From NCBI GenBank assembly GCA_030837965.1, contig JAUTXP010000014.1, positions 72,605 to 136,604 on the forward strand: 64,000 nucleotides of DNA, in the 5' to 3' direction. The notes beneath the pieces are model-generated. The model made no database searches and was not told the DNA's origin. It worked only from the letters and a program-made list of their open reading frames with translations. The DNA comes from Acidimicrobiaceae bacterium. Its GTDB lineage: Bacteria; Actinomycetota; Acidimicrobiia; Acidimicrobiales; JAUTXP01. The position numbers and the translations under genes were made by a program. Of this stretch, positions 61,636 to 64,000 are shown piece after piece (within the stretch, counting starts at the first letter, position 1; each line of letters begins with the position of its first letter).

Positions 61636-61960
61636 GGCGCGGCCGTCGTTCGGCACAGGTCTTGGCGTCTACTCGCTAGTTGCCGTATGAGGGGCCGCTC
61701 TCCGTCCGGCGGTACCGGCGGCGGCGGGCCTTGGCCGACAGCAGGGTGATGCCTGCCCGGGTGGCGGGCAACGGCCGGAGGGGTTCCGGCGGGCGTCGGC
61801 TGTCCGGCGCTGGAAGCTGTCGGGGCGATCTCACGCAACGTGATTTCCCCACTCGGGCGTCGGTTCCTGCGCGCTCGGACATTTCGGACCGCTCGTCCGC
61901 TGCCGTGGTCGGCGCTTGCCGCCCGCCGCGTGCTGGGCGGTTTGTTACCCTTCGGTAACC
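61636..61960. other. 325-bp gap between the alcohol dehydrogenase and tetR-like gene
   Basis: No convincing gene. A minus-strand frame at 61676-61882 (68 residues, ending AKARRRRYRRTESGPSYGN) is the best small ORF but has no family resemblance or clear ribosome-binding site. The last 17 bp form the TetR operator-like palindrome. Confidence 0.5.
61944..61959 (+). promoter_or_regulatory. Palindrome GTTACC-CTTC-GGTAAC upstream of the TetR-type gene
   Basis: The 6-bp inverted repeat ends 1 nt before ATG 61961 and contains TACCCT, a -10-like box 9 nt from the start. It is the likely autoregulatory operator and the core promoter. A GGTAAC half-site also appears near 62678. Confidence 0.55.
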
Positions 61961-62548
61961 ATGCAGGCCCGCCTCCCCGCCGCCCGCCGCAGGCGTCAAC
62001 TGCTCGACGTCGCCCTCCGCTCGTTCGCCGACCGAGGCTTCCACCAGACGTCGATGGACGACGTGGCCGAGGCCGCGGGCGTCACCAAGCCGGTCCTGTA
62101 CCAGCATTTCGCGTCCAAGCGGGACCTCTACCTCGAACTGTTGGACGACGTGGGCGGGCGCATGATGGACGCCATCGCCAAGGCCGTCGCGGCCGCCCAC
62201 GGGCCCCGACAGCAGGTCGAGGCCGGGTTCGGCGCCTACTTCCGCTTCGTGGCCGACGAGGCCGACGCCTTTCAGCTCCTGTTCGGCACGGGGACGCAGC
62301 GCGACGAAGACTTCGAGCGCGCCGTCAGCCGGGTCGAAGAGTCCATCGCCGAGGCCGTCGCCGTGTTCATCGTGGCCGACATCGAGCCCGAGCACCGCCG
62401 CCTGCTGGCCCACGGCCTGGTCGGCCTGGCCGAAGGCACCAGCCGCCTCTGGCTGGCCGACGGTATGCCCTCGGCCCCCGACCTCCTCGCCCGCCGCATC
62501 GCCGAGCTGGCCTGGGCCGGCCTACGCGGCGTCAGCCGCGCCGACTGA
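61961..62548 (+). CDS. TetR-family transcriptional regulator
   Basis: 195 residues from ATG 61961. HTH: RQLLDVALRSFADRGFHQTSMDDVAEAAGVTKPVLYQHFASKRDLYLELL. The C-terminal ligand domain is the type often found in fatty-acid or redox regulators (AYFRFVADEADAFQLLFG), but the ligand is unknown. Divergent target unknown; the alcohol dehydrogenase upstream is co-directional. It is the last typical high-GC gene before the composition change. Confidence 0.9.
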   Translation: MQARLPAARRRRQLLDVALRSFADRGFHQTSMDDVAEAAGVTKPVLYQHFASKRDLYLELLDDVGGRMMDAIAKAVAAAHGPRQQVEAGFGAYFRFVADEADAFQLLFGTGTQRDEDFERAVSRVEESIAEAVAVFIVADIEPEHRRLLAHGLVGLAEGTSRLWLADGMPSAPDLLARRIAELAWAGLRGVSRAD

Positions 62549-62709: not shown

Positions 62710-62909
62710 GCGCCCGTAGCTCAAGAGGTAAACGGGTCAGCGCGGGAAGCAATCGAGTGGCGCTCTTTTGCGGGGGATCCTCTTACTAGCCCGCGTTTTC
62801 TGCTCCCACCAAGAGCATTTTCGAGCAATACAGCGAGCTTACCCAACCAGGCCTCAAGAGCATTGGACTTGTAATCCGATAGATGTGGGTTCGAATCCCA
62901 CCGGGCGTA
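62710..62909 (+). tRNA. tRNA-Thr(UGU) with a 127-bp insertion in the D-loop
   Basis: The 5' half (62710-62730) is GCGCCCG-TA-GCTC-AAGAGGTA: acceptor strand, D-stem and D-loop with the GG pair. The 3' half (62858-62909) has GAGC (D-stem), an anticodon arm TTGGA-CTTGTAA-TCCGA (anticodon TGT), T-arm GTGGG-TTCGAAT-CCCAC and acceptor CGGGCGT-A. Acceptor strands pair 7 of 7 (one G-T). Joined, they give a normal 73-nt tRNA-Thr without encoded CCA. The 127 bp between (62731-62857) interrupt it exactly between the D-loop and the 3' D-stem. Whether it is spliced or the gene is dead cannot be told from sequence. Confidence 0.75.
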
Positions 62910-63090: not shown

Positions 63091-63207
63091 ATGGGACCGA
63101 ACGACGACGCGAGCATTGTGGCCACCGTCCGGCCACCCGTCCGTAAGCGGACGACTATCACTGCCGCGGAGGCGAGTAGACGACTCACGCAGGCGGTCCG
63201 GCAGTGA
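63091..63207 (+). CDS. 38-residue peptide coupled to the ArgRS-like gene
   Basis: ATG 63091 is preceded by GGGGGAAGG, 3 nt before it, a better ribosome-binding site than most in the window. The product (MGPNDDASIVATV, then RPPVRKRTTITAAEASRRLTQAVRQ) is Arg-rich in its second half. Its stop overlaps the GTG of the ArgRS-like gene (GTGA). The longer 83-residue track ORF from 62956 is less likely. It may be a leader peptide or a peptide substrate; the function is unknown. Confidence 0.55.
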   Translation: MGPNDDASIVATVRPPVRKRTTITAAEASRRLTQAVRQ

Positions 63208-64000
63208 CTGTGACCCGCGAGATCGTTGTCAATCCCGCCGCGGCGCGGCTGGAGGAAGTCTTGCGCGGCGCGCCGGCCCCAGAGGGGATGGACTTCAGCA
63301 CCCTTCGCGTCGAGCCTCATCCCCGAGGGGTGCCGGCCGATTTCCGCGTCGACGCGCGGGCCGCAATGCAAAATGGCGAGTCGGTAGCCACGGCCTGTAC
63401 GGCCGTGGCGGATGCCATCAGCGGTCTTGCCGAGATCAATGCAGTGACCGTGGTCCCGCCAAATGTGTATCTGGCGCCCACCACCGACGCGCTGGCGCGT
63501 GGCGTTATCGACGCCGTCTTGTCAAACCCGACGCGCTTTGGCGGAAGCCCGGTCGATCAGCCCTTGTACTACATCGTCGGGTTCTCTGGGCCAAACGTGA
63601 ACAAGCCACTGCATTTGGGCCATCTGCGGAACAACTTCGTCGGGATGGCCGTGGCCAACCTGCTGGCCGACAAGGGGCACACCGTCGAGCGGCAGGCTCC
63701 CCACTGTGACTGGGGTGTCCACATCGCCCAGGCGCTTCTCGCCTGGAAGAAGTGGGGCGATGGAACGACGCCCGAGATGCTGGGCGAGAAGGGCGACCAT
63801 TTCGTGGGACGCCATTACGTGCTTTTTCACCAGCGAGTCACCCCCACGCTCGAGGCCGAGGCGACGGCCATGATGAAGGCCCTCGAGGACGGGGACCAGA
63901 GCCTGTGGGCGGAGAACCATCGTTTCACCCAATGGGCAGACAAAGGCATCCGGGAGACGTACGCGCGGATCGGCACGCGTATGGACGCCATCTACTACGA
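63204..64000 (+). CDS. Divergent arginyl-tRNA-synthetase-like protein, 5' part (cut by window end)
   Basis: The frame is open from GTG 63204 to the last base (265 codons seen); it is not in the ORF track because it has no stop. Residues about 110-170 (YYIVGFSGPNVNKPLHLGHLRNNFVG, then GHTVERQAPHCDWGVHI) match the class I catalytic core of ArgRS with HLGH as the HIGH motif, and EKGDHFVGRHYVLF fits the following helices. The N-terminal 100 residues differ from housekeeping ArgRS. Codons such as GTT, CTT, AAT, ATC/ATT mixes are less GC-biased than in neighbours. It is probably a paralogue used outside translation or an acquired synthetase. Confidence 0.8.
   Translation, partial: MTVTREIVVNPAAARLEEVLRGAPAPEGMDFSTLRVEPHPRGVPADFRVDARAAMQNGESVATACTAVADAISGLAEINAVTVVPPNVYLAPTTDALARGVIDAVLSNPTRFGGSPVDQPLYYIVGFSGPNVNKPLHLGHLRNNFVGMAVANLLADKGHTVERQAPHCDWGVHIAQALLAWKKWGDGTTPEMLGEKGDHFVGRHYVLFHQRVTPTLEAEATAMMKALEDGDQSLWAENHRFTQWADKGIRETYARIGTRMDAIYY

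What the first reader, a model, noticed from the sequence alone, without database searches (positions are those of the whole stretch)
63091..64000. Small Arg-rich peptide translationally coupled to a divergent ArgRS paralogue
A 38-codon frame with a strong ribosome-binding site ends in GTGA overlapping the start of an ArgRS-like gene whose catalytic core is recognisable but whose N-terminus and motif details differ from housekeeping enzymes. ArgRS paralogues outside translation are known in tRNA-dependent natural-product pathways (for example arginine-containing cyclodipeptides in fungi), and other synthetase relatives modify peptides. Alternatives are an attenuation leader peptide or simple acquired resistance-type synthetase. 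The rest of the operon lies beyond the window.
Basis: partly seen in the sequence, partly recalled or inferred. Interest (0 to 1): 0.8.

Follow-up and report, generated by a model that had tools for sequence, protein, structure and literature searches.

The report
ArgRS-like enzyme with private tRNA
A rare group of actinobacteria carries a repurposed arginyl-tRNA synthetase together with its own extra tRNA, which often bears an added hairpin in the D-loop; the pair looks like a private supply line that loads an unusual amino acid onto tRNA for making a small molecule rather than proteins.

Summary
The ArgRS-like gene is real: 567 aa, starting at 63204 and ending beyond the window. It is one of three ArgRS-type genes in the genome. 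The others are a normal housekeeping argS and a second paralogue fused to an amino-acid N-hydroxylase. The paralogues form a clade outside the housekeeping enzymes. They keep the adenylation motifs, but all five have changed the arginine pocket (Tyr347 to Val, Gln375 to Trp, Asp351 lost) and deleted the loop leading into the anticodon-binding domain.

The 38-codon frame exists, but its codon use is in the non-coding range, no relative conserves it, and such a frame arises in about 12% of random upstreams.

At 62710-62909 lies an extra tRNA with a 127-nt D-loop insertion. All four genomes with the paralogue carry a related extra tRNA; three have the D-loop insertion, whose signature was absent from the 393 other genomes searched. 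All tested helices pair, with compensatory changes.

In relatives the pair sits with an SbnA-type diaminopropionate enzyme, ATP-grasp, lyase, kinase, formyltransferase and D-aminoacyl-tRNA deacylase. Best reading: a private synthetase-tRNA pair charging a non-arginine amino acid for tRNA-dependent biosynthesis. Charging is not shown.

The parts
62710..62909 (+). Extra tRNA(-like) gene, anticodon UGU by cloverleaf; core 62710-62730 and 62858-62909, acceptor stem GCGCCCG/CGGGCGU, discriminator A, no encoded CCA
   Evidence: Rfam tRNA match over gathering score; missed by ARAGORN; covarying core; genome already has a full set of canonical tRNAs including Thr GGT, CGT and TGT
62731..62857 (+). 127-nt insertion in the D-loop, ends AACGGG...CCTCAA shared with relatives, predicted to extend the D-arm as an extra structured arm
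   Evidence: whole-RNA fold z = -2.0
63204..64000 (+). ArgRS-like synthetase, GTG start; full length 567 aa, continues past the window to contig C25 position 137511 (window-equivalent 64907)
63091..63207 (+).
61958..62548 (+). TetR-type regulator upstream; link to the pair unknown
   Evidence: ORF; TetR assignment is my own reading of the sequence, not a family search

Best explanation
The locus encodes a private synthetase-tRNA pair. An ArgRS-derived enzyme activates a non-arginine, probably small or diamino amino acid (diaminopropionate or a derivative in the best-annotated relatives). It transfers the amino acid to the dedicated tRNA encoded just upstream, recognised by its own features rather than by an arginine anticodon. 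The charged tRNA feeds an aminoacyl-tRNA-dependent biosynthetic step, not ordinary translation. Shown here: the genes, the re-specified pocket, structural conservation of the tRNA, and linkage or co-occurrence of tRNA and synthetase. Inferred: charging, the amino acid, the acceptor and the product.
For: Synthetase: five paralogues in four genomes form one clade, support 100/100. HLGH, MRSR and the PN of the SPN motif are kept. Residues equivalent to yeast Tyr347 (V in 5/5), Asp351 (W/Q/L/L/F) and Gln375 (W in 5/5) are changed while an acidic residue at Glu294 is kept; the GNTGP loop is deleted; the 12 housekeeping enzymes keep the three residues and the loop. The predicted fold matches the yeast ArgRS-tRNA complex 1f7u over its full length. 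tRNA: a member lies 294 nt upstream here, 45 nt upstream in AC_25 (L013), and at the head of the operon in G079 and G788. This genome has two paralogues and two such tRNAs (C25, C77). In 397 genomes of the order the long-D-loop pattern occurs in 3, all among the 4 that have the synthetase. Core: 105/105 cells paired, 8 pairs with double changes, 0/500 shuffles as high. Pathway: G079/G788 operon SbnA-like PALP, ATP-grasp ligase, ASL-like lyase, GHMP kinase, D-aminoacyl-tRNA deacylase, formyltransferase, ArgRS-like. SbnA above its cut-off overlaps the synthetase gene in L013. The C61 paralogue is fused to a Lys/Orn N-monooxygenase.
Against: No charging data. Only four genomes, at least two of them MAGs. 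The window locus itself shows no biosynthetic gene except a luciferase-like monooxygenase. The tRNA of AC_25 lacks the insertion and has anticodon UAA. C61 has no tRNA next to it and C77 no synthetase; their pairing is only arithmetic. No known aminoacyl-tRNA-consuming enzyme (PEARL, GNAT, CDPS) was recognised. The pattern used was derived from three of the matching tRNAs, so that co-occurrence count is partly circular.
Confidence: 0.58

Rival explanations
1. tRNA-independent amide ligase: like MshC (from CysRS), the enzyme adenylates an amino acid and passes it directly to a small-molecule amine; the tRNA is a neighbour with another role.
For: Anticodon-binding region diverged (DALR_1 below cut-off or undetected) and the GNTGP loop is deleted; MshC is among the structural matches (as for any related class I synthetase); one relative's operon contains an ATP-grasp ligase.
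Against: The N-terminal and C-terminal helical regions are retained with a full-length match to ArgRS-tRNA, whereas MshC is truncated; recurrent dedicated tRNA; tRNA deacylase in the operon.
Confidence: 0.2
2. The pair is used on the ribosome: the tRNA (UGU or UAA) inserts an extra amino acid at the rare codons ACA or UUA, a natural expansion of the code.
For: Intact anticodon arms; ACA and UUA are rare codons in GC-rich genomes (established knowledge); dedicated synthetase-tRNA pairs are otherwise known mainly from pyrrolysine.
Against: Would compete with the canonical tRNA-Thr(UGU); large D-loop inserts; anticodon not constant; formyltransferase and deacylase in the operon fit off-ribosome use better (inference).
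Confidence: 0.07
3. A second, resistance-type or horizontally acquired arginyl-tRNA synthetase for normal translation.
For: ArgRS fold and active-site motifs.
Against: Arg-binding residues replaced in all five; argS equivalog score far below cut-off; housekeeping argS present.
Confidence: 0.04
4. One reading: a 38-residue peptide translationally coupled to the synthetase, as attenuation leader or substrate.
For: SD-like sequence and GTGA overlap.
Against: Non-coding codon score, no conservation, 12% chance frequency.
Confidence: 0.05

Closest known systems
SbzA, IleRS-like enzyme of SB-203208/altemicidin biosynthesis (PMC12945691)
   Same: Synthetase paralogue working in natural-product biosynthesis with aminoacyl-tRNA
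   Different: SbzA uses the Ile-tRNA made by the canonical IleRS; here the family has its own tRNA and derives from ArgRS
PylRS/tRNA-Pyl
   Same: Dedicated synthetase plus dedicated tRNA with unusual structure, with biosynthetic genes nearby (from my knowledge)
   Different: Class II synthetase, ribosomal UAG decoding; here class I ArgRS-derived, anticodon UGU or UAA, biosynthetic context
MshC, CysRS-derived ligase of mycothiol synthesis
   Same: Class I synthetase repurposed in actinobacteria (from my knowledge)
   Different: tRNA-independent and truncated; here full-length ArgRS architecture with a linked tRNA
Hydrazine synthetases (MetRS-like plus cupin plus N-hydroxylase; PMC11705231)
   Same: The C61 paralogue is fused to an N-hydroxylase and lies about 7 kb from a cupin, a MetRS-like protein and a DAO-type oxidase
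   Different: That review has no mention of ArgRS or arginyl; the window locus lacks these genes
Fungal arginine-containing cyclodipeptide synthases
   Same: Arginine-related, tRNA-dependent chemistry
   Different: Not compared by sequence; here the arginine pocket is changed

Membership tests
Functional arginyl-tRNA synthetase | Class I catalytic domain with HIGH and KMSKS-type motifs | tested here: met
   HLGH, MRSR, PF00750
Functional arginyl-tRNA synthetase | Arg-binding Tyr347, Asp351, Gln375 (yeast numbering) | tested here: not met
   V, W/Q/L/L/F and W in the paralogues; kept in 12/12 housekeeping rows
Functional arginyl-tRNA synthetase | argS equivalog score TIGR00456 >= 261.65 | tested here: not met
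   145.8 bits; housekeeping 454.2
Functional arginyl-tRNA synthetase | Charges tRNA-Arg with arginine | not testable with these tools
   needs biochemistry
tRNA | Cloverleaf with acceptor, D, anticodon and T stems, conserved across relatives | tested here: met
   21 pairs, 100% of cells, compensatory changes
tRNA | Expressed, processed and aminoacylated | not testable with these tools
   needs RNA-seq and a charging assay
Dedicated aaRS-tRNA pair | tRNA is additional to the canonical set | tested here: met
   G000 has 49 other tRNAs including Thr TGT; in the other genomes not fully tested
Dedicated aaRS-tRNA pair | Linkage or co-occurrence with the synthetase | tested here: met
   adjacent or at the operon head in all four genomes; long-D-loop pattern in 3/4 genomes with the paralogue and 0/393 without
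Hydrazine synthetase pathway | cupin, MetRS-like and N-hydroxylase encoded together | tested here: inconclusive
   present on contig C61 but the N-hydroxylase fusion is about 7 kb away; absent at the window locus
MshC-like ligase | truncated synthetase lacking the anticodon-binding domain | tested here: inconclusive
   C-terminal helices retained in the model, but loop deleted and DALR_1 below cut-off

The most novel reading that the evidence does not exclude
A naturally orthogonal, ArgRS-derived synthetase with a five-armed tRNA (hairpin in the D-loop) that charges a non-proteinogenic amino acid: a private aminoacyl-tRNA channel separated from translation and used in several different biosynthetic operons.
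Probability: 0.45. Interest if true: 0.92.

Novelty: new variant of a known kind. Interest (0 to 1): 0.82.

Why it matters
Natural synthetase-tRNA pairs outside the standard twenty are very few. A class I, ArgRS-derived pair with a structurally marked tRNA would show how cells can insulate an extra aminoacyl-tRNA from the ribosome, would point to unknown tRNA-dependent metabolites, and could give a new orthogonal pair for engineering.

Tried and rejected
Peptide as partner: rejected on codon score, no conservation and chance frequency.

Housekeeping or resistance ArgRS: rejected on pocket residues, equivalog score and tree.

Decayed tRNA or chance match: rejected because the acceptor, anticodon and T stems covary across five sequences and the insertion ends are shared.

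Self-splicing intron: no Rfam intron match in the window region at E <= 1 and the insert is short; other splicing is not excluded.

An early reading of the pocket (Tyr kept, Asp to Met; written in my first notebook entry) was off by one column and was corrected with the 17-row alignment.

Literature searches for ArgRS in hydrazine or other clusters, and for dedicated or pseudo-tRNAs in clusters, gave nothing relevant in the open-access library; this is not proof of absence. Searching plasmids found only Bacteroidota ArgRS-like matches, two annotated argS. A sigma-70 promoter scan of the window region found nothing.

Full report
Observation. The 38-codon frame and the GTGA overlap are in the sequence as described. 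Reading past the window end on the same contig (C25) gives a complete 567-aa ArgRS-like protein, followed 82 nt later by a luciferase-like monooxygenase and then genes on the opposite strand. The peptide is weak: its codon score is below 99% of coding windows, no other locus has it, and about 12% of random upstreams of the same composition give such a frame.

The enzyme. The genome holds three ArgRS-type genes. One is a normal 630-aa argS (C54). One is the window gene. One is a 1112-aa protein on C61 whose N-terminal part is 44% identical to the window protein and whose C-terminal part is a lysine/ornithine N-monooxygenase. Searches of 395 genomes of the class, 397 of the phylum and 397 of the order (overlapping samples), plus a scan of a collection of 84,980 species, gave relatives in only three further genomes: G079, G788 (= MAG 0813_bin7) and G765 (= MAG AC_25). 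The five proteins form one clade, support 100/100, against housekeeping ArgRS of Bacteroidota, two candidate phyla and the genome's own; long branches mean the deeper position is unsure. By sequence they resemble Bacteroidota-type ArgRS more than the genome's own. The model (mean pLDDT 78) matches yeast ArgRS with tRNA (1f7u) along its length.

Pocket. Aligned with 12 housekeeping enzymes, and with yeast ArgRS through the profile alignment, the positions of Tyr347, Asp351 and Gln375, which contact bound arginine in yeast ArgRS (my knowledge of that structure), are V/V/V/V/V, W/Q/L/L/F and W/W/W/W/W. The Glu294 position stays acidic and the Asn of SPN is kept. A segment of about 10 residues (GNTGP) before the anticodon-binding helices is deleted. 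Adenylation is therefore likely kept but arginine unlikely. A smaller amino acid with an amino group would fit a tryptophan-filled pocket with an acidic residue (inference).

The tRNA. Rfam detects a tRNA at window 62836-62901. The full element is 62710-62909: perfect acceptor stem, anticodon arm with UGU, T arm, and a 127-nt insertion in the D-loop. ARAGORN misses it. The genome has 49 other tRNAs, including all three threonine anticodons. In AC_25 a tRNA (UAA, no insertion) lies 45 nt before the synthetase. In G079 a tRNA with an 18-nt D-loop insertion lies at the head of the operon, followed by a strong terminator. G788 has a 96% identical one in the same place. The small inserts contain GGC-GUAA-GCC and GGC-GAAA-GCC, i.e. 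hairpins with GNRA tetraloops (sequences and folds). A second long-insert tRNA (172 nt) lies on C77 of the window's genome, so that genome has two synthetases and two tRNAs. The shared signature GTAGCTYAAn(1-2)GGTnAACGGG is found in 3 of 397 genomes of the order, all with the synthetase, and in none of the 393 without it; the pattern was built from these tRNAs, so this shows restriction more than independent co-occurrence. With inserts removed, all 21 pairs form in all five RNAs, 8 pairs show changes on both sides, and no shuffle reaches this. ARAGORN names the G079 and G788 tRNAs Leu(taa); the 5-bp anticodon stem gives UGU, and I prefer that reading.

Context. G079 (and G788 where its contigs reach): tRNA, SbnA-like PALP, ATP-grasp amino-acid ligase, argininosuccinate-lyase-like enzyme (the ATP-grasp and lyase match the two halves of PRK02186), GHMP kinase, D-aminoacyl-tRNA deacylase (PF04414), formyltransferase, ArgRS-like. 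AC_25: tRNA, ArgRS-like, SbnA above its cut-off. C61: the ArgRS-N-hydroxylase fusion is followed by a FAD-linked oxidoreductase and lies about 7 kb from a cupin, MetRS-like and DAO cassette like those of hydrazine synthesis (PMC11705231). A kinase, SbnA-like enzyme and lyase could make a 2,3-diamino acid (inference from family chemistry); a tRNA deacylase and a formyltransferase beside a synthetase suggest handling of charged tRNA.

Interpretation. I conclude, at 0.58, that this is a private synthetase-tRNA pair for tRNA-dependent biosynthesis. Linkage, structural conservation of the RNA and pocket change are shown; charging, substrate, acceptor and product are inferred. The closest precedent in function, SbzA, uses a standard tRNA (PMC12945691). 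I found no report of an ArgRS-derived enzyme with its own tRNA in the open-access library, which does not exclude one.

Noticed in passing
L005:10025-13363 (-), contig C61 of the same genome: ArgRS-like domain fused to a lysine/ornithine-type N-monooxygenase (1112 aa), followed by a FAD-linked oxidoreductase
   Followed up: partly
L007:13926-14264, L005:240-1805, L005:1757-2842 (contig C61): Cupin, MetRS-like and DAO oxidase genes overlapping one another, like a split hydrazine synthetase with its oxidase
   Followed up: partly
L072:9301-9545 (contig C77): Second tRNA-like gene with a 172-nt D-loop insertion and an encoded CCA, without a synthetase nearby; neighbours are an MOSC-like gene and an unknown 382-aa protein
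   Followed up: partly
L012:1692-2606, and the G079 operon in L011: D-aminoacyl-tRNA deacylase of the PF04414 family (best known from archaea and plants) in an actinobacterial operon
   Followed up: partly
L011:3767-4978 and L012:2-679: ATP-grasp and argininosuccinate-lyase-like enzymes as separate genes matching the two halves of PRK02186
   Followed up: no
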